From contig JAJDNW010000033.1 in NCBI GenBank assembly GCA_022340465.1, positions 1 through 44,212 on the forward strand: 44,212 bases of DNA. Direction: 5' to 3'. This DNA is from Deltaproteobacteria bacterium (GTDB lineage: Bacteria; Desulfobacterota; Desulfobacteria; Desulfobacterales; B30-G6). Below, piece after piece: positions 409 through 8,853 of this stretch. The first letter of the stretch is position 1. Each line of letters opens with the position of its first letter. Under the pieces are notes generated by a model. That model was not told the DNA's origin, made no database searches, and saw only the letters and a program-made list of their open reading frames with translations. The translations under genes and the position numbers were made by a program.

Positions 409-2379
409 CTACAGTTCCAGGCGCTTTATAAGGGCTTCGGTGGGATGGCCGGTTTCCGGGTCCCACTCCAAAGCGTCCCAATAGTCACGGATCATCCGCT
501 CCACCGGCACGGCTCTACCCTTGTTGGCGCCGGCCGAAAGGGGGGGGCGTCCCAACGCCCGATCCGTCATTTTTATTTTCCCCGGCTCGATCCCCTGTTT
601 GAGATTGAACATCTGCTTCAGCGTCTGAATACGTGCACCGGTCACCATGTAATCATCCGGTGAATACCCCCAGCCGGTGGCGGCCTCCAGCCATTTGAAC
701 AGGGGGAAGGTTTCGAGCCCGAAAAGGGCGCCATACATGCAGGCGCCCGAACCGTTGATGATATTCATGTATTTGCTGCACGCTGCCGCCGCCACCGCTT
801 TTTCCCTGTCCGGAACGTATTTGCTCCGCTTGAGGTAGATCAGGTCCGGTTCGGGAAGGCGGGATACCTGCTCCCACAACCTGAAAAGCTCGTAGTAGAG
901 CTGCGATCCGATGGTGTGCCTTCCCGGGGTTGCCTCCACGCTGTTGTGCAGTGCAAACCCGGGATCGAAACGGCCGTCATGCATGGCCAACTCCTGGCCG
1001 CCCGCGTGAATGGCGAACGTCCCGGACCCCCTGCCGATCTTTTGCGAAGCCATTTTGACGCCATCGGCCAAAAGATCACCGATGCCGTCCCGGGCAATCA
1101 TCTTGTCGACCAGCGCTTCGATGGCCGCACGGTTGCCCCAGGTAAGAGCAAGCCCGTCGGTATCCCCGGTGGTCAGGATCCCCTTTTCAAAACACTCGAT
1201 GGCAAAGGCCACGGTCCCACCGGCGGAAATGGTGTCCATGCCCGCCCGGTTGAGCTTCTCGTTCAGGCGGAAAATGCTTTCCGAATCGTCGTTCATACAC
1301 AATCCGCCCAGGGCCATAACGGTTTCATATTCGGGCTTGTGGGTCTCTCCCTGAATCCCCGACCGCAGGCAGAGGCCGCCGCACCCCAGTGGGCATGAGT
1401 AGCAATGATACCTCACGACGACGCAGTCGGAAAACACATCGGGGTTCAGCTTTGCCGAGTGTTCCCGGGGAAAATCCTCGTTGCTGCCCTTCCAGTTCTT
1501 TATGGGCGTATCGCCGAGTTCAATCAGAATCTGGTTGAGGCTGGCCGTGCCCCACTTCTGGAGCATGCGTTTGTAAACCGTGTTGAAATAAAGGGCTTCC
1601 GCGGAGGGTTGAGCGGGCAGTGCCCGTAAAAAAGCACCCAGGTAGGAAAGCACATTTGCCGGAGGAAAGGGCGGCATGAATTGAATGCTGTCATTGCACG
1701 CCTTGCTCAGGCGTTTGATTTCGGCCTTGTTGTTGGATGAAATCCGCTGAACGCCATCCAGGACGACGGCTTTCAGACGCTTGGACCCCATGACGGCACC
1801 CAGCCCGGAACGGGCGGCCATTCTGCCGCCGTCGTTGGCAATGCCGGAAATCAGGGACAGGTTCTCCCCGGCCGGACCGATGCAGGCAATGCGCGGGTTG
1901 TTGCACCCGGCTTTCGCTTTCAGGAACCGTTCGGTTTCCTTGGTGTCCTTTCCCCACAACGCTTTTGCATCGCGGAGTTCGGCTTTTTCACCGTGGATGC
2001 AAAGGTAAACCGGATGACGGCTTATTCCCGAAAAGAAAATGCCGTCGTACCCGCACCGTTTGATGGCCGGTGAAAAGTTGCCGCCGCAGTTGGCATCTCC
2101 CCATGTCCCGGTCAGGGGAGATTTCCCCGCCGCCATCCACCGCCCGGTGAACAGGCTGCCCGTGCCCGTCAGGAGTCCGGAAACGAAACAGAGTACGTTT
2201 TCCGGCCCTAACGGATCGGCAGCCTTCGGGATCGCATCGTACAGGATGCGAACAGCCATACCCGAACCGGAAAGATACTTTCGGTAAAGCGATACGGCAA
2301 TTTCTCTCTCCTCGAGAAGGCCCCTGTCCAGGTCCACCCAGAGAATTTTACCCATACACCCGTTGTTGGCTGTCTTCAT
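409..2379 (-). CDS. Aldehyde:ferredoxin oxidoreductase family protein (tungsten-bis-pterin type)
   Basis: The 656-residue protein belongs to the AOR family, whose members bind a tungsten-bis-pyranopterin cofactor and one 4Fe-4S cluster and typically oxidise aldehydes to acids with ferredoxin as acceptor. It begins with the usual GKILWVDL strand. The N-terminal domain has the GKSPLTGT and GGNFSPAIKRCGYDGI signatures. Cluster cysteines follow the C-x2-C-x3-C pattern at residues 326, 329 and 333, with a probable fourth at 547 in GSGACMYG. Length is in the usual range of about 600-660. The ATG at 2379 is preceded by GAGG. An internal ATG (residue 9) matches the family start equally well. It shares a likely operon with the ferredoxin and is divergent from marR. 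The substrate is unknown; BamB, the benzoyl-CoA reductase subunit, is a relative of similar size and cannot be excluded. Confidence 0.88.
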   Translation of the reverse strand: MKTANNGCMGKILWVDLDRGLLEEREIAVSLYRKYLSGSGMAVRILYDAIPKAADPLGPENVLCFVSGLLTGTGSLFTGRWMAAGKSPLTGTWGDANCGGNFSPAIKRCGYDGIFFSGISRHPVYLCIHGEKAELRDAKALWGKDTKETERFLKAKAGCNNPRIACIGPAGENLSLISGIANDGGRMAARSGLGAVMGSKRLKAVVLDGVQRISSNNKAEIKRLSKACNDSIQFMPPFPPANVLSYLGAFLRALPAQPSAEALYFNTVYKRMLQKWGTASLNQILIELGDTPIKNWKGSNEDFPREHSAKLNPDVFSDCVVVRYHCYSCPLGCGGLCLRSGIQGETHKPEYETVMALGGLCMNDDSESIFRLNEKLNRAGMDTISAGGTVAFAIECFEKGILTTGDTDGLALTWGNRAAIEALVDKMIARDGIGDLLADGVKMASQKIGRGSGTFAIHAGGQELAMHDGRFDPGFALHNSVEATPGRHTIGSQLYYELFRLWEQVSRLPEPDLIYLKRSKYVPDREKAVAAAACSKYMNIINGSGACMYGALFGLETFPLFKWLEAATGWGYSPDDYMVTGARIQTLKQMFNLKQGIEPGKIKMTDRALGRPPLSAGANKGRAVPVERMIRDYWDALEWDPETGHPTEALIKRLEL

Positions 2380-2508: not shown

Positions 2509-2976
2509 ATGAACCTTCTAGGCGGAAACATACCGGAACGCCAGCTTGACCAGTTTCAGAATTTGATTACCAAACTGTATCAATGCTGCCAGGACCGCAT
2601 GCGCTACCAGAGTGAGCGATTCAGCCTGCCGGAGGCCGAAATGCGCTGCCTGCTTCTGTTCGGGGACGAAAAGTATTTAACGCCCAAAGGCCTGGCCGGC
2701 AAACTGAATCTGGTCAAGAGCCGCATTTCGAAATTGATTTCCGGTCTGAACAAAAAAGGGCTGATCCAACGCGTCACCGATCCGGTGGACTCCAGAACCA
2801 CGCTGTTGTGCCTGACCGCCGCAGGTCATAAAAAACTAAATGAAATCAAAAAGTTCTTAAATGACACGCACGAAGAAGTTCTCAGACAGATGGAACCGGA
2901 GCAACGCAATACCATGATGACCAACCTCGAGCTGCTGAAGGCATCCATGGAATCGATCAAGGAATTGATGGTATAG
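2509..2976 (+). CDS. MarR-family transcriptional regulator
   Basis: The 155-residue protein has a MarR winged helix-turn-helix. A helical N-terminus with LYQCCQDRMRYQ is followed by the DNA-binding region (LTPKGLAGKLNLVKSRISKL, about residues 59-80) and the wing with the DSRTTLLCLTAAG motif (about 93-107). A C-terminal dimerisation helix rich in Glu, Lys and Met ends the protein. MarR proteins bind as dimers to palindromes and often control the divergent neighbour, here the AOR-family gene and its ferredoxin. The ATG has no ribosome binding site, but the promoter immediately upstream would place the transcript start at or next to it. The ligand is unknown. Confidence 0.88.
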   Translation: MNLLGGNIPERQLDQFQNLITKLYQCCQDRMRYQSERFSLPEAEMRCLLLFGDEKYLTPKGLAGKLNLVKSRISKLISGLNKKGLIQRVTDPVDSRTTLLCLTAAGHKKLNEIKKFLNDTHEEVLRQMEPEQRNTMMTNLELLKASMESIKELMV

Positions 2977-3115: not shown

Positions 3116-3661
3116 ATGTCAACAGTCGAAGAACAAGTCGCAAATCTTAAAGCACAGCTGGATGCTATGAGCGCCAAAGCCACTGCCAACAAACTGTCCA
3201 TGATCGTTTTCAGCGGCGATCTGGACAAGGCCCTGGCTGCATTCATTATCGCCACCGGCGCCACCGCCATGGGCATGGATGCGGTCATGTTTTTCACCTT
3301 CTGGGGAACGCCGATACTGCGTGCCGGCAACAAAAACGTGGGCGGAAAAGACATGATGGGAACCATGTTCGGAAATATGCTGCCCAAAGGCGCCGAAAAA
3401 GTCAAACTGTCCAAAATGAACATGGGCGGCATGGGTACTGCCATGATGAAATCCCTGATGAAGAAAAAAAACGTGGCCTCCTTACCGGAAATGATCGCGC
3501 TTGCCCAGGAACTGGGCGTTAAAATTTACGTGTGCGAAATGTCCATGGACCTCATGGGGTTCAAACGTGAGGAGATGATCGACTATGAGGGCCTTGAATT
3601 CGCCGGAGTGGCCACCTTCCTTGCGGAGGCACAGGACAGTAAAGTGCAGCTGTTCATCTAG
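3116..3661 (+). CDS. DsrE/DsrF/DsrH-like sulfur-transfer protein
   Basis: The 181-residue protein matches the DsrE-like fold of persulfide-carrying proteins. After a short helical N-terminus comes the core strand KLSMIVFSGDLDKALAAFII (about 26-45), a Gly/Met-rich middle (AGNKNVGGKDMMGTMFGNML) and the strand KIYVCEMSMDLMG. The latter holds the only cysteine, Cys140, at the position used for persulfide binding in the family. AAGGAGG lies 6-7 nt before the ATG. TusA follows 128 nt downstream, and DsrE-type proteins are known partners of TusA in sulfur relays. It is not one of the dsrEFH trio, because no DsrF or DsrH is present. It is closer to the larger Met-rich DsrE2-type proteins. The carrier role is inferred from family and context. 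Confidence 0.85.
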   Translation: MSTVEEQVANLKAQLDAMSAKATANKLSMIVFSGDLDKALAAFIIATGATAMGMDAVMFFTFWGTPILRAGNKNVGGKDMMGTMFGNMLPKGAEKVKLSKMNMGGMGTAMMKSLMKKKNVASLPEMIALAQELGVKIYVCEMSMDLMGFKREEMIDYEGLEFAGVATFLAEAQDSKVQLFI

Positions 3662-3789
3662 CCGGGGGGGGCTGACCGTCGTTAACACGACCGCCGGCCT
3701 GAAATTCGCAGCCAACACACCGGGGCCGATTTAATCGGTTCAGGGTTTGAAAAAAAGTTTTGCAACCGCATCAAAAAGGAGGAATTATC

Positions 3790-4032
3790 ATGAGCGACGA
3801 CATCAGTGTAGAAAAGCAAATGGACCTGAGCGGCCTGGCATGCCCCATGCCGGTGGTCAAGGTCAGCAAAGGCATTAAGGAAATCGAGGTGGGCCAGGTG
3901 CTCGAGGCTGTCACGACCGATCCCGGTTCTCTCACCGATTTTCCAGCCTGGGCGCGCACCAGCGGAAACGAAATCCTTAAAACCGATCAAGACGGTGACA
4001 CCATTAAATTCTATATCCAGAGAAAATCCTAA
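3790..4032 (+). CDS. TusA-family sulfur carrier protein
   Basis: The 80-residue protein is a TusA/SirA-type sulfur carrier. Its signature GLACPMPVVKV has Cys18 in the CPxP motif, which takes up sulfane sulfur as a persulfide. The rest (VLEAVTTDPGSLTDFPAWARTSGNEI) matches the two-layer fold with the family's DPxxxxDxxxW pattern. The ATG at 3790 is chosen over an in-frame upstream start because AAGGAGG sits 7 nt before it. The gene lies between the DsrE-like gene and the cytochrome b/HdrD-like pair, all on the same strand. This suggests that it passes sulfur between the DsrE protein and an unidentified acceptor. A role in tRNA thiolation is less likely in this setting. Confidence 0.92.
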   Translation: MSDDISVEKQMDLSGLACPMPVVKVSKGIKEIEVGQVLEAVTTDPGSLTDFPAWARTSGNEILKTDQDGDTIKFYIQRKS

Positions 4033-4047
4033 ACGGCACCATCAACA

Positions 4048-4140
4048 TTTGAATTCACCCGGAACCCATGCGTTACGGTAGGCGTCGCATCCCTGGGAGG
4101 GGTGCACACCGCCCCGTCACGAAGCCCGGGTGAATTCAAA
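4048..4140 (+). ncRNA. Structured intergenic element, possible cis-regulatory RNA
   Basis: TTTGAATTCACCCGG (4048-4062) pairs perfectly with CCGGGTGAATTCAAA (4126-4140). This 15-bp closing stem encloses 63 nt. Inside, ATGCG (4068-4072) can pair with CGCAT (4086-4090), and GGGG (4099-4102) with CCCC (4112-4115), giving a three-way-junction layout. The closing stem ends 7 nt before the Shine-Dalgarno GGAGG (4148-4152) of the cytochrome b gene. No T-run follows, so it is not a simple terminator. A riboswitch, protein-binding leader or mobile palindromic repeat are all possible. I do not recognise a known class. Confidence 0.45.
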
Positions 4141-4157
4141 AGTAAACGGAGGTTGTT

Positions 4158-4868
4158 TTGCAATCCCTGTATTATTTCATTCTGGTCCCCATGGTATATG
4201 TTGCCGCTGCCGTATTCGTTGTCGGTACAGCAGCCAGATTAATTAAAATTTTCACCGCGCCCGCGCATCCCACGACGCTGCAGATCTATCCGACTCCGAA
4301 AGGAAAGTTTCTGACGCTGCTCAGCGATATTTTTCTTTTCCCCACCGTGCGCAGGCACAAACCCCTATTATGGGTATTTCTGATCGTCTTTCACATCGGT
4401 CTGATCCTGCTGTTCATCGGCCACCTGGAACTGATCTGGGACGTGAGCGTTTTCCAGATCATACCCCATGAACCGTTTCTGGGAAAGGGATACCTGGGGC
4501 TCATTTTGGCCGTCTGCCTGCTCTATTTTCTCTTTCGAAGATTTATTTCGCCGGTCAAAGAGCTCTCGGTGCCCGAAGACTACTATCTGCTCATCCTGCT
4601 GTTTCTTATTGTCATCTTCGGCAGTGAAATGGATTGGGCCCGGCGGATCTATTTCTACGAGGAGATGACCGTCGACGATTACCGCGTTTATTTGTCAAGC
4701 CTGCTGGCCCTCAGGCCGGAACTTCCCGATGGGATCATTTTTTCAGGCCACTCTTTCATGCTGGTGCTGCACGTTTTCATAGCCAACCTGTTCCTTATTT
4801 TCTTTCCCTTCAGCCAAAGCATGCATTCGTTCCTTTCGATTCCCATCAACAAATTGAGAAGAGGTTAG
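4158..4868 (+). CDS. NarI/DsrM/TmcC-like membrane cytochrome b subunit
   Basis: The 236-residue protein has about five hydrophobic membrane segments (roughly 7-27, 70-92, 112-130, 141-155 and 198-220), like the NarI and DsrM quinone-reacting subunits. Histidines suited to bind two hemes b lie in or next to these segments: His67, His79 and His89 in the FHIGLILLFIGH region, and His198, His205 and His223 near the end (FSGHSFMLVLHVF). It probably exchanges electrons between menaquinone and the Fe-S subunit encoded 2 nt downstream. The start is TTG at 4158, chosen because GGAGG lies 5 nt before it and no ATG fits. It resembles DsrM and TmcC; other subunits of those complexes are absent here. Confidence 0.82.
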   Translation: MQSLYYFILVPMVYVAAAVFVVGTAARLIKIFTAPAHPTTLQIYPTPKGKFLTLLSDIFLFPTVRRHKPLLWVFLIVFHIGLILLFIGHLELIWDVSVFQIIPHEPFLGKGYLGLILAVCLLYFLFRRFISPVKELSVPEDYYLLILLFLIVIFGSEMDWARRIYFYEEMTVDDYRVYLSSLLALRPELPDGIIFSGHSFMLVLHVFIANLFLIFFPFSQSMHSFLSIPINKLRRG

Positions 4869-4870
4869 CC

Positions 4871-6130
4871 ATGGACCAGGATACCCGAAATGAACTTCTA
4901 AAACTTTTCAAAAGTAAACTCAACCAAGCCATGCGGCTTTACCTGGAAACCTGCACCCGCTGCGGTGTCTGCGTCGAAGCCTGTCATGTTTACGCGTCGA
5001 CGGGCCAGGTCAAGCATATCGCCGCCTATCGCGGTGAAATCATCAGAAGGCTCTATAAAAAATACTTCAAAACACGGGGCAAGATCTGGCCTTCGGTGGG
5101 TGAAGCCAGCGAGCTGAGCGACAGGGCCATAGAACCCCTCTTCGAAGCGGCTTACTCCTGCACCGGTTGCCGGCGCTGCATGGTCTACTGTCCCTTCGGC
5201 ATCGATACCCAAATGCTGATGTCCATCGCCAAGCTGCTGCTCATCGGTGCCAGCGCAGAGCCCGAAATTCTGACGATGCTGGCCGACACGTCCGTGGAAA
5301 AAGGCAAATCCCTCGAATTTTTCAAGGAGGGCTTTTTAAAGGGCGTTAAAAACCTGGAAAATGAAGTCGTCAAAAAATGGAAAATCGAGGCGGGCGAAAC
5401 CGCCATTCCCGTGGATGTGGAAGGCGCCGACCTGCTCTATGTGGCCCTGGCAGGGGCTCACTCCATCATACCGGCGGCGGCCGTTTTCAATGCCGCCGGC
5501 GAAAACTGGACCTTGAGCTTTTTTGAGGCTGTCAATTTCGGGGCCTTCGTGGGAGACCCCACCAAAACGAAACTGATTCTCGACCGCATCATCAATGAGG
5601 CGCTGCGCCTCAAGGTGAAAGAGGTCTGTATCTGCGAATGCGGCACCGCCTTCCGGGTAATGAAACAGCTCTCCGGGCCCCAGCCGTTCAAAGTCACATC
5701 CATTACGGAGGTGCATGCCCGCTACCTTCGTGAAAACAGGATCAAGCTTGACAAATCGCGGTTCAAAGAAGCGGTTACCTATCACGATCCCTGTCAGATC
5801 GCCCGCAACGGCGGCGTGATCGACGAACCCCGCTTCATTCTGCAACACCTCACGGATGATTTCCGTGAAATGTCACCCGAACCGAAATATAACTGGTGCT
5901 GCGGCGGGGGCGGCGGGCTTGTGGCCCTGGGGGATGAAACCATCGACTTCAGGATGAAATCGTCGAAGGTCAAAGCCGAACAGGTGCAGAAAACCGGAGC
6001 CGGCATCCTGACCACCGCCTGTGAAAACTGCCATACCCAACTGGACAATCTCAACGATCACTACAAGCTGGGCGTGGAGGTCAGATTTCTATCGTCCATG
6101 GTCGCCGATGCCCTCGTTCAAGAACAATAA
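4871..6130 (+). CDS. HdrD/DsrK/TmcB-like Fe-S oxidoreductase
   Basis: The 419-residue soluble subunit has two ferredoxin-type 4Fe-4S sites (Cys28/31/34/38 and Cys97/100/103/107). They are followed by a C-terminal CCG domain of the heterodisulfide-reductase catalytic type: Cys308 in YHDPCQ, Cys343-Cys344 in NWCCGGGG, and Cys384/Cys387 in CENC. A partial first CCG repeat is visible at CICECGTAF (about residue 255). Such domains hold a non-cubane cluster that acts on disulfides or a trisulfide. The ATG at 4871 is 2 nt after the cytochrome b stop, with GAGG upstream. An open frame extends further upstream but only overlaps the preceding gene. The pair resembles DsrMK or TmcBC. Adjacent TusA and DsrE make a sulfur-linked thiol/disulfide substrate attractive, but this is inference. 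Confidence 0.85.
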   Translation: MDQDTRNELLKLFKSKLNQAMRLYLETCTRCGVCVEACHVYASTGQVKHIAAYRGEIIRRLYKKYFKTRGKIWPSVGEASELSDRAIEPLFEAAYSCTGCRRCMVYCPFGIDTQMLMSIAKLLLIGASAEPEILTMLADTSVEKGKSLEFFKEGFLKGVKNLENEVVKKWKIEAGETAIPVDVEGADLLYVALAGAHSIIPAAAVFNAAGENWTLSFFEAVNFGAFVGDPTKTKLILDRIINEALRLKVKEVCICECGTAFRVMKQLSGPQPFKVTSITEVHARYLRENRIKLDKSRFKEAVTYHDPCQIARNGGVIDEPRFILQHLTDDFREMSPEPKYNWCCGGGGGLVALGDETIDFRMKSSKVKAEQVQKTGAGILTTACENCHTQLDNLNDHYKLGVEVRFLSSMVADALVQEQ

Positions 6131-6148
6131 TAATTTAGGAGGAATTTG

Positions 6149-7405
6149 ATGCAAAAACGTTTTATTTTAACCATTATCTTAGCCCTGTGTCTGGTGCCGC
6201 CGGCAATGGCCACCAACGGCAGCAACCTCATTGGGGTCGGCCCCATGTCCAGGTCCATGGGAGGGGTCGGTGTCGCCGCTCCCCAGGACGCCATCGGCGC
6301 TATTTTTGCCAACCCTGCAGCCATCTGCTTCGGGCCGTTCTGCCCGGGTGCGGAAGCCGACTTTGCCGGCACCTATTTCAGCCCCAGCGTCGACGGAAAA
6401 GCCAAGGTTACGGTTCCGACGGGGAATCCGAGCCAACCCTATACGCAGGTGAAAGGCAGCGATACCAGCGAGATGGATCCTTCGGTCGTTCCCGCCATCG
6501 GCATCTCCACGCCCCTCTCACCGAAGTGGCGCTTCGGTGTCGGCGCTTACGGTGTCTCGGGCATGGGGGTAAGCTACAAGGAATCCGATCTGCCTCTGCC
6601 CGGCAACATCTACACCAAACTGGAAGTGATGAACTTCGCACCCAACCTGGCCTACCTGATCAACCCGAATTTCAGCGTGGGTGCCAACGCGATTGTCAGC
6701 TATCAGAACCTGGACCTCGGTTACGGTGCCGATCACGGCTACAGTATGGGCTTTCAGCTGGGCGGGTTGTACAAGCTGGGAATCATCAACCTGGGTGCGT
6801 CATACACCTACCACCAAGGCGTCACCCACAACAAGGTCGCCTATCTTGACGATTACGACGCCTCCGGCAATCTGACCGCTGATGCCACCCTAGACGATCT
6901 CGAACTGCAATCCCCCCAGGTCGTCGCCCTGGGCGTCGCCCTGGAGCCCGGATCCTCCTGGCTGGTCGAAGTGAACACGCGCTGGATCAACTGGTCGAAC
7001 GCCAACGGCTACAAAGATTTCGATTGGGAAGACCAGTGGGTCTTCGCCCTGGGCGCCCAGTACAAACTCACGGACGCCTTCTCTTTACGGGCGGGCTACA
7101 ACTACGCCAAAAACCCCGTCAAAGAGCACGACGGTTTCAATCCCATGGGCAGCACCGACGTACAAGGTCACGACGTCGGCAACGTCAACTACGAAGCCCT
7201 GCGCATTCTCGGATTCCCGGCCGTGGTCGAACATCACATCACCCTGGGGGCGGGATACAAGTTCAGCACCACTATAGCGCTCAATCTGGCCTACGTGCAT
7301 GCCCTCGAGAATACCACCAAGGAATCCTCCGCGGGTGACGCCTTCAGCTTCGAGTCTTCACTCAAGGAGGATACCGTTACCCTGGGCCTGACATGGTTCT
7401 TTTAA
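6149..7405 (+). CDS. OmpP1/FadL/TodX-family outer membrane channel
   Basis: The 418-residue protein starts with a signal peptide (MQKRFILTIILALCLVPPAMA) that would be cut before TNGSNLIG, the conserved FadL N-terminus. The rest alternates short hydrophobic and aromatic strands typical of a 14-strand beta barrel, and ends in GLTWFF with a terminal Phe as used for Bam recognition. FadL-type channels take up hydrophobic compounds such as fatty acids or aromatics. AGGAGG lies 6 nt before the ATG at 6149, and a TTG three bases earlier is not needed. It follows the HdrD-like gene by 18 nt and is closed by a terminator, so it appears to be the last gene of the transcript. Its cargo is unknown. Confidence 0.88.
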   Translation: MQKRFILTIILALCLVPPAMATNGSNLIGVGPMSRSMGGVGVAAPQDAIGAIFANPAAICFGPFCPGAEADFAGTYFSPSVDGKAKVTVPTGNPSQPYTQVKGSDTSEMDPSVVPAIGISTPLSPKWRFGVGAYGVSGMGVSYKESDLPLPGNIYTKLEVMNFAPNLAYLINPNFSVGANAIVSYQNLDLGYGADHGYSMGFQLGGLYKLGIINLGASYTYHQGVTHNKVAYLDDYDASGNLTADATLDDLELQSPQVVALGVALEPGSSWLVEVNTRWINWSNANGYKDFDWEDQWVFALGAQYKLTDAFSLRAGYNYAKNPVKEHDGFNPMGSTDVQGHDVGNVNYEALRILGFPAVVEHHITLGAGYKFSTTIALNLAYVHALENTTKESSAGDAFSFESSLKEDTVTLGLTWFF

Positions 7406-7495: not shown

Positions 7496-7534
7496 CCGGG
7501 GAATGTGCTGGCCGCATTCCCCGGCCGTCTTTTT
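7496..7534 (+). terminator. Rho-independent terminator after the FadL-type gene
   Basis: CCGGGGAATG (7496-7505) pairs with CATTCCCCGG (7515-7524), followed by CCGTCTTTTT. Confidence 0.85.
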
Positions 7535-7704: not shown

Positions 7705-8853
7705 ATGGAAGTGCAATCGTTTACAGCGCAGGAGTTATTTTCATGGCTTATCGCCAAGGAAGACTTTCTGCTCGTGGATGTTCGTAATGACGAAGAGTTC
7801 GGCCGGTTCAAGGTGGAGGGTCCCTATCCCTTCGACATGGTGAACGTACCGTACATGGAGTTCATCGAACACGAAGAGGAAAGCGTTGCCAAAGTGCCCC
7901 GCGGTAAAAAGGTGCGGATTGTCTGCGCCAAGGAAGGCTCATCCAAATACGTTGCCGAAATCCTGGTCAATCACGGTTTCGACGATGTGGCCCACATGCT
8001 GGTCGGCATCAAAGCCTGGGGAAACCTGCTCGCTCCCGTACGCGTCGCCGGCGGCGCCGATTATGAGCTGCATCAGTTCCGGCGACCGGGCAAGGCCTCC
8101 TGCAGCTACGGCCTCGTCTGCGGCGAGGAGATGATGGTGTTTGACCCGGCCAAAAATATTGCGGCCTACACCGAATTTGCCGCCGAAAAGGGCTGTAACA
8201 TCACAAAAACCTTCGAAACCCACCGCCAGGCCGATTACATTTCCGGCAGCATGGGGCTGAACAAATCCCTGGGCGTCGAGATCGTCGCGCCCGACGAGGA
8301 TTTTCACCCGGCCACGTTCGCTTACACGCCCGCCGGAGACGGAACCGTTTTCAGGTTCGGCAACGGGGGGCCGGAAGTCAAGTCGATCCACACACCCGGC
8401 CACACCCCGGGCAGCACCTGCTATCTGATCGATGACCGCTACATGATAACCGGCGACACGGTCTTCATCTACTCCATCGGGCGCCCGGACCTGGGGGGCA
8501 TGGCCAAGGAGTGGTCCCAGATGCTGTTCGACACCCTGCAGCAGAAAATCCTTCAGTGGGACCGTGCGACACTGATGCTTCCAGGCCACTACATGGACTG
8601 GAAGGAAGCCAATCAGGACCTTGTTTTCACGAGGTCGCTCGAACAAATCAAAGAAATCAACGCTGACATCTACAACATTGCCGACGCAGACACCTTTTAC
8701 GGCTTTATCGAGGCCAACATGCGCAAGCAGCCCGACGAATATGCCAAAATTCGTGAAATCAACGCGGGTCTGGTAACGGTAGATGATGAAAATGCCGATA
8801 TCATGGACCTGGGAAAAAACGAGTGCGCCGCCAGCAAGATGGCCAACAAATAA
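7705..8853 (+). CDS. Rhodanese-metallo-beta-lactamase fusion, persulfide-dioxygenase-like
   Basis: The 382-residue protein joins an N-terminal rhodanese domain to a C-terminal MBL domain. The rhodanese part has LLVDVRNDEEF and the active loop CAKEGSS with Cys74. In the MBL part, the usual HxHxDH is changed to H173-R-Q175-A-D177-Y178. The mononuclear-iron ligands of ETHE1-type persulfide dioxygenases are kept: His173, His233 in HTPGHTPGS, and Asp251 in TGDTVF. His295 (LPGHYMDW) and the GRPDLGG loop also fit that family. The ATG at 7705 has AAGGAGG upstream, while an in-frame extension to 7606 lacks this. Terminators flank it, so it is probably transcribed alone. It likely handles sulfane sulfur; an oxygen-dependent dioxygenase in an anaerobe would be odd. 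Confidence 0.85.
   Translation: MEVQSFTAQELFSWLIAKEDFLLVDVRNDEEFGRFKVEGPYPFDMVNVPYMEFIEHEEESVAKVPRGKKVRIVCAKEGSSKYVAEILVNHGFDDVAHMLVGIKAWGNLLAPVRVAGGADYELHQFRRPGKASCSYGLVCGEEMMVFDPAKNIAAYTEFAAEKGCNITKTFETHRQADYISGSMGLNKSLGVEIVAPDEDFHPATFAYTPAGDGTVFRFGNGGPEVKSIHTPGHTPGSTCYLIDDRYMITGDTVFIYSIGRPDLGGMAKEWSQMLFDTLQQKILQWDRATLMLPGHYMDWKEANQDLVFTRSLEQIKEINADIYNIADADTFYGFIEANMRKQPDEYAKIREINAGLVTVDDENADIMDLGKNECAASKMANK

What the first reader, a model, noticed from the sequence alone, without database searches (positions are those of the whole stretch)
3116..7405. DsrE-TusA sulfur carriers linked to a DsrMK/TmcBC-like membrane module and a FadL channel
Five plus-strand genes lie in a row: DsrE-like (single Cys140), TusA-like (CPxP), NarI/DsrM-type cytochrome b, HdrD/DsrK-type CCG protein and an outer membrane channel, ended by one terminator. 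DsrE and TusA together are known from the YTD-type cluster reported in sulfur disproportionators, but there the partner is a YedE-like transporter. Here the partner is a quinone/heterodisulfide module. This suggests persulfide or trisulfide reduction coupled to the quinone pool, next to sat and apr-qmo. Sequence shows the gene order; the coupling is inference.
Basis: partly seen in the sequence, partly recalled or inferred. Interest (0 to 1): 0.72.

Follow-up and report, generated by a model that had tools for sequence, protein, structure and literature searches.

The report
Quinone-linked sulfur-carrier gene cluster
Sulfate-reducing and some other anaerobic bacteria keep a set of neighbouring genes that joins two small sulfur-carrying proteins to a membrane electron-transfer pair, probably a dedicated enzyme for reducing (or oxidising) protein-bound sulfur with the cell's quinone pool.

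Summary
Two corrections: a MarR-type regulator with three conserved cysteines (2509-2976) belongs to the unit, and FadL is optional. Searching with DsrE, the order DsrE-TusA-cytochrome b-HdrD is kept in 50 of 67 assessable relatives. Searching with HdrD, it is kept in 13 of 16 assessable genomes, with all four genes in 14. No other neighbour family occurs in more than 10 of 80 loci. The HdrD protein is not DsrK, TmcB or HmcF: this genome carries all three elsewhere, and the cluster proteins form a separate clade. It is not a YTD variant: no YedE match in the genome. Seven of 31 cluster-bearing genomes show no dsrA match; two of them also have no DsrC or canonical DsrK match. DsrC trisulfide is therefore unlikely to be its only substrate. 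Best reading: a MarR-controlled quinone:protein-persulfide oxidoreductase using TusA/DsrE as sulfur carriers, more likely reductive. Electron flow, direction and substrate are inferred. Ten paper searches listed nothing I recognised as this gene set. New variant of a known kind.

The parts
2509..2976 (+).
   Evidence: Pfam MarR 32.8 bits; same strand upstream of DsrE in 57 of 70 assessable loci; Cys26 in 61 of 62, Cys27 and Cys47 in 62 of 62 aligned sequences
3116..3661 (+). DsrE-type sulfur carrier, PF13686 (DrsE_2), single Cys140
   Evidence: 185.8 bits; Cys140 in 79 of 79; solved relative 3pnx; below the NCBIfam DsrE2 cut-off, 92.3 vs 210
3790..4032 (+). TusA-type sulfur carrier, CPMP with Cys18
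   Evidence: Pfam TusA 78 bits; Cys18 in 65 of 65
4158..4868 (+). NarI-type membrane cytochrome b; likely two haems b and a quinone site (inferred)
   Evidence: Nitrate_red_gam 43.8 bits; five hydrophobic segments; His79, 89, 198, 205, 223 in 53 of 53; the model (pLDDT 73.6) matches NarI chains, TM about 0.6 at rmsd about 7
4871..6130 (+). HdrD/DsrK-type iron-sulfur protein: two [4Fe-4S] motifs and a complete CX34CCX39CXXC CCG motif
   Evidence: these 13 Cys in 50 of 50; separate clade; 2-nt gap to the cytochrome b gene
6149..7405 (+). FadL-type outer-membrane channel (optional member), with a Cys60/Cys65 pair
   Evidence: Toluene_X 99.5 bits; follows HdrD in 17 of 42 assessable loci; Cys60, Cys65 and His363 in 19 of 19
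7496..7524 (+). intrinsic-terminator-like stem, end of the unit
   Evidence: 12 pairs followed by a T run, first row of the scan

Best explanation
The cluster encodes a membrane-bound oxidoreductase that exchanges electrons between the quinone pool and sulfane sulfur carried as a persulfide on TusA and DsrE. Proposed working: sulfane sulfur (polysulfide or low-molecular persulfide) is loaded on TusA Cys18 and DsrE Cys140. The HdrD-like protein, through its CCG-type iron-sulfur centre, cleaves the persulfide to sulfide and free thiol. Electrons come from quinol through the NarI-type dihaem cytochrome b. The MarR protein represses the genes and lets go when its cysteines react with sulfane sulfur. 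FadL, where present, may let hydrophobic sulfur species cross the outer membrane. Shown by sequence: the parts, their conserved catalytic-type residues, and their inheritance as a unit. Inferred: transcription as one operon, electron path, direction (reductive favoured), substrate, and the roles of MarR and FadL.
For: Order kept in 50 of 67 assessable loci found by DsrE and 13 of 16 found by HdrD; no other neighbour family in more than 10 of 80 loci. Divergence of the parts is correlated: cytochrome b/HdrD r = 0.91, TusA/HdrD 0.76, DsrE/HdrD 0.67, none of 999 permutations as high. Sulfur-carrier, Fe-S and haem-type residues are invariant in the aligned sets. HdrD is a distinct clade beside DsrK, TmcB and HmcF. 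The module persists in 7 of 31 genomes with no dsrA match, two of which also have no DsrC or canonical DsrK match, so TusA/DsrE rather than DsrC is the likely partner. Related DsrE proteins sit with other redox modules: fused to a CoA-disulfide-reductase-type flavoprotein, rhodanese and TusA, or beside FlpD and/or Qmo-like genes in six Bacteroidota loci. The fused form was proposed as a sulfur reductase in Pelobacter (PMC3543383, passages) and rises 50-fold in a mutant of the MarR regulator BmoR of Bacteroides fragilis (PMC6158253, passages). MarR proteins can sense sulfane sulfur (PMC11211675, abstract).
Against: No expression, biochemical or genetic data. Reducing a persulfide with menaquinol is uphill unless the membrane potential helps (recalled), so oxidation is possible. 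DsrE-TusA also sits beside a rhodanese/metallo-beta-lactamase gene in 4 of the 80 loci, which would fit an oxidative use. Most carriers tested hold DsrC (16 of 18) and a dsrA match (24 of 31). MenD and MqnC searches did not show which quinone is present; even this genome has neither over the cut-off. The best structural match of the HdrD model is EtfD (9ojn), whose partner is a flavoprotein (recalled). L229 and L230 hold cytochrome b-HdrD without DsrE or TusA at my thresholds, and 17 of 67 assessable DsrE loci lack the whole set. The correlation does not remove shared species history. Names such as Spirochaetota rest on the depositors' labels of metagenome bins.
Confidence: 0.5

Rival explanations
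1. Same module, opposite direction: sulfide or persulfide bound to DsrE/TusA is oxidised, electrons enter the quinone pool, and sulfane sulfur is fed to the Dsr pathway or a persulfide dioxygenase (sulfur oxidation or disproportionation).
For: Thermodynamically easier with menaquinone (recalled). DsrE-TusA sits beside a rhodanese/metallo-beta-lactamase (persulfide-dioxygenase-like) gene in L079, L110, L126, L134, and such a gene follows the cluster in the window. TusA/DsrEFH type II relays were argued to be oxidative in cable bacteria (PMC13293266, passages).
Against: Carriers include genomes with no match to dsrA, DsrC or canonical DsrK. The known fused flavoprotein-rhodanese-TusA-DsrE protein is proposed to be NADH-driven and reductive.
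Confidence: 0.25
2. It is a DsrMK paralogue that reduces DsrC trisulfide like DsrMKJOP, with TusA/DsrE merely trading sulfur with DsrC.
For: HdrD scores 267 bits with the DsrK model; 16 of 18 carriers tested have a DsrC match.
Against: The score is under the DsrK cut-off of 400, it is a separate clade, and true DsrMKJOP is present in the same genome. G149 and G161 keep the cluster with no match to DsrC, dsrA or canonical DsrK, although these genomes may be incomplete.
Confidence: 0.12
3. An EtfD-type electron entry module: HdrD-cytochrome b takes electrons from a soluble flavoprotein to quinone, and DsrE/TusA serve regulation or sulfur trafficking only.
For: EtfD of Mycobacterium is the best structural match of the HdrD model (TMq 0.64) and also appears for the cytochrome model.
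Against: Neighbour families other than the cluster reach at most 10 of 80 loci, and the five whose representatives I named (F1, F3, F4, F5, F7) are not electron-transfer flavoproteins, whereas DsrE and TusA are conserved. The CCG cysteines are complete.
Confidence: 0.08
4. A YTD-type disproportionation cluster that has lost or replaced its YedE transporter.
For: Both hold TusA and a DsrE-family gene.
Against: YTD's DsrE-like and CHP proteins are a DsrEFH type II trio (PMC13293266, PMC13047784, passages); here there is one PF13686 protein and no such trio in the unit. No YedE match in this genome, nor in 10 of the other 19 tested.
Confidence: 0.03

Closest known systems
DsrMK(JOP) complex
   Same: NarI-type cytochrome b plus HdrD-type CCG protein, presumed quinone-linked thiol/sulfur redox at the cytoplasmic face
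   Different: Separate HdrD clade; scores under the DsrK and DsrM cut-offs; no J, O or P; linked to DsrE-TusA; canonical copy elsewhere in the genome; found in some genomes without a dsrA or DsrC match
TmcBC and HmcEF
   Same: Same two-subunit architecture
   Different: Under the TmcB, TmcC, HmcF and HmcE cut-offs; TmcB and HmcF orthologues are elsewhere in the genome
YTD cluster / DsrEFH type II with YeeE/YedE and TusA
   Same: TusA and a DsrE-superfamily carrier in anaerobic sulfur bacteria
   Different: No YedE match in this genome, no three-part DsrEFH in the unit; quinone/Hdr-type partner instead
rhd-tusA-dsrE-hdr (sHdr) cluster of sulfur oxidisers
   Same: Sulfur carriers TusA/DsrE beside heterodisulfide-reductase-like proteins (PMC2754497, PMC4175335, passages)
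   Different: sHdr is a multi-subunit HdrC1B1A-HdrC2B2 complex; here one HdrD-type protein with its own membrane cytochrome b, and no rhodanese inside the unit
CoA-disulfide reductase-rhodanese-TusA-DsrE fusion proteins (Pelobacter Pcar_0429, B. fragilis BF638R_0572)
   Same: DsrE with TusA next to a redox centre; MarR-type control in B. fragilis
   Different: Electron partner there is NADH through FAD in one polypeptide; here separate carriers and a membrane quinone-type module
EtfD
   Same: NarI-like plus CCG domains; best structural match of HdrD
   Different: Single protein whose partner is an electron-transfer flavoprotein (recalled)

Membership tests
DsrMK(JOP) | DsrK/DsrM model scores over NCBIfam cut-offs | tested here: not met
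   DsrK 267 vs 400, DsrM 36.7 vs 300 bits
DsrMK(JOP) | Groups with canonical DsrK in a tree | tested here: not met
   50 cluster rows one side of a branch (100*), 12 canonical DsrK on another (quick tree)
DsrMK(JOP) | CCG cysteines and dihaem-type histidines | tested here: met
   unlike the genome's own DsrK, the final CXXC is complete
DsrMK(JOP) | Acts on DsrC trisulfide | not testable with these tools
   Two of 18 carriers tested have no DsrC match
TmcBC / HmcEF | Scores over TmcB, TmcC or HmcF cut-offs | tested here: not met
   TmcB 223.9 vs 735, TmcC 47.4 vs 240, HmcF 210.8 vs 750
YTD cluster | YedE-type transporter next to tusA and dsrE | tested here: not met
   No PF04143 match in the genome
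YTD cluster | DsrE-like plus two CHP proteins (DsrEFH type II) | tested here: not met
   One PF13686 protein followed by TusA; no orthology tree against YTD proteins was made
DsrE2 | NCBIfam SulfCarrDsrE2 equivalog cut-off | tested here: not met
   92.3 vs 210 bits
DsrE2 | Two transmembrane helices | tested here: inconclusive
   One borderline hydrophobic window (1.61) only
PF13686 DsrE superfamily | Domain over gathering score, conserved Cys | tested here: met
   185.8 vs 25 bits; Cys140 79 of 79
TusA | Domain and CPxP motif | tested here: met
   78 vs 28.6 bits; Cys18 65 of 65
FadL/OMPP1 | Toluene_X domain, signal-type N-terminus | tested here: met
   99.5 vs 29.7 bits; N-terminal hydrophobic stretch
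Sulfane-sulfur-sensing MarR | MarR domain with conserved cysteines | tested here: met
   Pfam MarR; three conserved Cys
Sulfane-sulfur-sensing MarR | Responds to sulfane sulfur and binds the operon promoter | not testable with these tools
   A palindrome search upstream of dsrE showed no shared operator in the 14 of 67 upstream stretches printed
EtfD | ETF partner nearby or fused membrane/CCG polypeptide | tested here: not met
   Separate genes; no neighbour family in more than 10 of 80 loci

The most novel reading that the evidence does not exclude
A fourth quinone-linked HdrD/cytochrome b complex of anaerobes, next to DsrMK, Tmc and Hmc, whose substrate is a protein persulfide (TusA/DsrE) rather than DsrC: a cytoplasmic, MarR-controlled sulfur respiration that works independently of dissimilatory sulfite reductase.
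Probability: 0.35. Interest if true: 0.8.

Novelty: new variant of a known kind. Interest (0 to 1): 0.6.

Why it matters
How sulfate reducers and other anaerobes use elemental sulfur, polysulfide and persulfide in the cytoplasm is unsettled, and the proposed markers (DsrE2 and others) are disputed (PMC12998232, passages). A conserved unit of sulfur carriers and a quinone-type electron module gives a concrete, testable enzyme for that step. It is present in a cultured isolate (Desulfacinum infernum DSM 9756, L094), and DsrK-family surveys should keep it apart from true DsrK.

Tried and rejected
YTD membership: rejected, no YedE match and no DsrEFH trio in the unit. True DsrMK, Tmc or Hmc: rejected by scores, tree and presence of the real ones in the genome. 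Sat/apr-qmo context as part of the system: rejected as general; sat was found in 2 of the loci L033-L141. FadL as an obligatory part: rejected (17 of 42; absent in G001).

The 18-nt inverted repeat between tusA and the cytochrome b gene (4045-4143) as an operon-specific RNA switch: not favoured. The same-genus genome G001 has it here too with a changed pair in the arm, but also 11 further matches (at most 1 mismatch) of one arm elsewhere, against 0 control matches, so it looks like a dispersed palindrome; in the window's own genome only this pair was found. A shared MarR operator upstream of dsrE was not seen (14 of 67 stretches printed). Quinone-biosynthesis searches (MqnC, MenD) had no power: the window's own genome shows neither over the cut-off although it holds DsrM. 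No solved relative of the cytochrome was found by sequence. The careful (bootstrap) tree did not finish; the HdrD tree is the quick one, and its warnings about long branches apply. The DsrE tree is weakly resolved and does not rule out a single origin for each partner set.

Literature limits: Neukirchen and Sousa's survey (PMC10504309; passages and section 7) reports a basal DsrMK-only clade with Deltaproteobacteria; I could not read its supplements, so overlap with this family is possible. The 2011 comparative-genomics review of sulfate reducers that I looked for is not held.

After the filing check I recounted.
Full report
What is there. The window is bases 1-44,212 of contig C33 of a 4.39-Mb genome of 162 contigs, 95% complete. 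On the plus strand lie MarR 2509-2976, DsrE 3116-3661, TusA 3790-4032, cytochrome b 4158-4868, HdrD-like 4871-6130 and FadL-like 6149-7405, then a terminator-like stem at 7496-7524. The cytochrome b and HdrD genes are 2 nt apart. AGGAGG sites precede dsrE, tusA and the fadL gene (read). Downstream follow a rhodanese/metallo-beta-lactamase protein, then sat, and qmoC, qmoB and further genes on the other strand. sat, qmo and apr are named from sequence by recall, not by a family search.

Conservation seen from DsrE. In 146 genomes (the window's own and its relatives), 39 hold a DsrE match. Of these, 23 are 68-91% identical to (or are) the window protein, and in 19 of the 23 the locus shows TusA, cytochrome b and HdrD in order behind it. 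The other four end at a contig edge (G145, G090), lack the module (G108) or carry a shortened DsrE (G056). In a collection of one genome for each of 84,980 species, 400 stretches matched the DsrE patterns, 365 encode a relative, and the best 80 were kept. Of 67 loci with at least 2.5 kb downstream, 50 keep DsrE-TusA-cytochrome b-HdrD on one strand. MarR lies upstream in 57 of 70 assessable, and FadL follows in 17 of 42 assessable. Some of these 80 loci are the same genomes as or near-copies of each other. BLAST clustering of the other open frames found no further family in more than 10 of the 80 loci. The representatives that I named are ABC-transporter ATPases (F1), an OmpA-type protein (F3), a sigma-54 activator (F4), a helicase (F5) and a small PF02635 DsrE-like protein (F7, four loci).

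Conservation seen from HdrD. An evenly drawn sample of 395 genomes of the phylum holds this HdrD type in 19 (13 of 246 genera), a minority trait. Leaving out the window, 18 loci were read. Two end at a contig edge. Of the other 16, 13 have DsrE-TusA-cytochrome b-HdrD in order, one (L228) has all four with TusA behind a divergent cytochrome, and two (L229, L230) show only cytochrome b-HdrD. The gene order is thus not a by-product of searching with DsrE.

Reach. Carriers include Desulfobacteria, Syntrophobacteria (Desulfacinum infernum DSM 9756, a cultured strain), Desulfovibrionia, Desulfomonilia, two bins named Spirochaetota, one named Candidatus Aminicenantes, and three gutless-worm symbionts. 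These names are the depositors' labels, mostly of metagenome bins, and misbinning is possible; the L135 'Spirochaetes' genome, for one, also holds dsrA and canonical DsrK. Many records are named only 'Deltaproteobacteria'; the tool's lineage for that name (Myxococcota) should not be trusted.

Residues. In alignments of named loci chosen by score and length, Cys140 of DsrE is kept in 79 of 79, and Cys18 of TusA in 65 of 65. His79, 89, 198, 205 and 223 of the cytochrome are kept in 53 of 53. Eight [4Fe-4S] cysteines and C308, C343, C344, C384, C387 of HdrD are kept in 50 of 50. MarR Cys26 is kept in 61 of 62, Cys27 and Cys47 in 62 of 62. FadL Cys60, Cys65 and His363 are kept in 19 of 19. The spacing of His79/89 and His205/223 recalls the haem ligands of NarI (recalled). 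The cytochrome model, of moderate confidence (pLDDT 73.6), matches NarI chains (TM about 0.6, rmsd about 7). The HdrD model (pLDDT 77.7) matches EtfD first, then LutA and HdrB.

Not DsrK, TmcB or HmcF. NCBIfam scores are under every one of these cut-offs. This genome has four DsrK-family matches at E up to 1e-40: canonical DsrK inside dsrMKJOP on C56, TmcB on C37 and HmcF on C110, and the cluster protein. In a tree of 80 rows the 50 cluster rows fall on one side of a fully supported branch, apart from 12 canonical DsrK (quick method, long-branch warnings).

Independence from sulfite reductase. dsrA was sought in 50 of the 80 genomes, chosen by me (L072 and L093-L141). 30 exceed the cut-off, 7 more have partial or weak matches and 13 have none. 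Of the 31 of these 50 whose locus shows both cytochrome b and HdrD, 7 have no dsrA match: L107, L111, L116, L122, L128, L136, L140. DsrC was found in 18 of 22 genomes tested, 16 of the 18 carriers among them, and canonical DsrK in 12 of 16 tested. L140 and L116 have no match to any of the three; L128 and L136 lack dsrA and canonical DsrK but have DsrC. The completeness of these genomes is not given, so single absences are weak; the agreement across three genes is better evidence.

Partner swapping. DsrE relatives appear in other settings. In two genomes of the window's order (G078, G042) they are the last domain of a flavoprotein-rhodanese-TusA-DsrE fusion. In six Bacteroidota loci they precede a FlpD-family gene (named in L137) and/or Qmo-like genes, and none of those six genomes has a dsrA match. 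In four of the 80 loci DsrE-TusA lies beside a rhodanese/metallo-beta-lactamase gene instead. Some loci hold MarR-DsrE alone (for example L078 and L104). The common theme is a sulfur carrier next to a redox module whose electron partner changes. The DsrE tree cannot tell how often each swap occurred.

How it probably works. Persulfide on TusA and DsrE meets the CCG centre of HdrD, which is linked through its [4Fe-4S] clusters to the dihaem cytochrome b and so to quinone. I favour the reductive direction for three reasons. The fused relative was proposed as an NADH-driven sulfur reductase (PMC3543383, passages). Genomes without a sulfite-reductase match carry the module. The regulator type suggests a response to sulfane sulfur (PMC11211675, abstract; PMC6158253, passages). 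The opposite direction stays open, since menaquinone is a better acceptor than menaquinol is a donor for this chemistry (recalled), and the dioxygenase-like neighbours point to oxidation in some genomes.

Against what is in print. YTD papers (PMC12998232, PMC13293266, PMC13047784, passages; PMC8528874 and PMC8780430, passages) describe TusA/DsrE with YedE. The sHdr papers (PMC2754497, PMC4175335, passages) describe tusA-dsrE with Hdr-like genes. Ten full-text searches listed no paper that I recognised as describing DsrE-TusA with a NarI/HdrD pair; of the papers listed I saw passages of eleven and the abstract of one more, not the rest. A DsrMK-only clade in PMC10504309 (section 7) may overlap with it. 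Hence: a new variant of a known kind, with the biochemical step untested.

Noticed in passing
window 4045-4062 and 4126-4143: 18-nt inverted repeat between tusA and the cytochrome b gene; in the same-genus genome G001 the repeat is here too, and one arm recurs at 11 other places with at most one mismatch: a dispersed palindrome rather than an operon-specific switch.
   Followed up: partly
window 7705-8853: Rhodanese plus metallo-beta-lactamase fusion (persulfide-dioxygenase-like) between the cluster and sat; in other loci (L079, L110, L126, L134) the same family sits directly beside DsrE-TusA.
   Followed up: partly
window 409-2379 (minus) and L191: An aldehyde:ferredoxin-oxidoreductase-type protein is divergent from the MarR gene; the genome's only other FadL-type gene (C149) also lies next to such a gene, and L102 has one near MarR-DsrE.
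   Followed up: partly
L060:2033-4492, L061:4161-6680 (minus): Single proteins fusing a CoA-disulfide-reductase-type flavoprotein, rhodanese, TusA and DsrE_2 in two genomes of the same order.
   Followed up: yes
L130, L131, L133, L137, L139, L141: Bacteroidota loci with DsrE next to a FlpD-family gene (named in L137) and/or Qmo-like genes, all in genomes without a dsrA match.
   Followed up: partly
L055, L056, L057, L058, L059: More distant DsrE relatives (54-58% identical) in the window's order lie about 1.3-2.3 kb behind Qmo-like genes, without TusA-cytochrome b-HdrD of the cluster type.
   Followed up: no
L065, L067, L070, L085: A second, small DsrE-like protein (PF02635, 24.1 bits) lies behind the cluster or its remnant in four loci.
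   Followed up: no
L186:1303-2634 (minus): In the Aminicenantes-named genome G146 a second, different HdrD-type protein lies about 0.7 kb from the DsrC gene although no dsrA match was found.
   Followed up: no
L053/L138, L037, L042: Signs of decay or sequence error: DsrE matched only to about residue 149 with no module behind it in a single-contig genome; cytochrome b or HdrD split into two frames.
   Followed up: no
L125: MarR-DsrE followed directly by FadL with no TusA, cytochrome b or HdrD found.
   Followed up: no
FadL, window 6149-7405: Invariant cysteine pair CFGPFC (Cys60, Cys65) in all 19 aligned cluster FadL proteins; the genome's other FadL-type protein lacks it.
   Followed up: partly
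whole genome G000: Neither MqnC nor MenD reaches its cut-off although quinone-type complexes are encoded; the quinone pathway is unresolved.
   Followed up: no
L002 (C58:5812-6237): A second, distant DrsE_2 gene in the same genome, about 29% identical, with no cluster gene in the 3.4 kb read around it.
   Followed up: no
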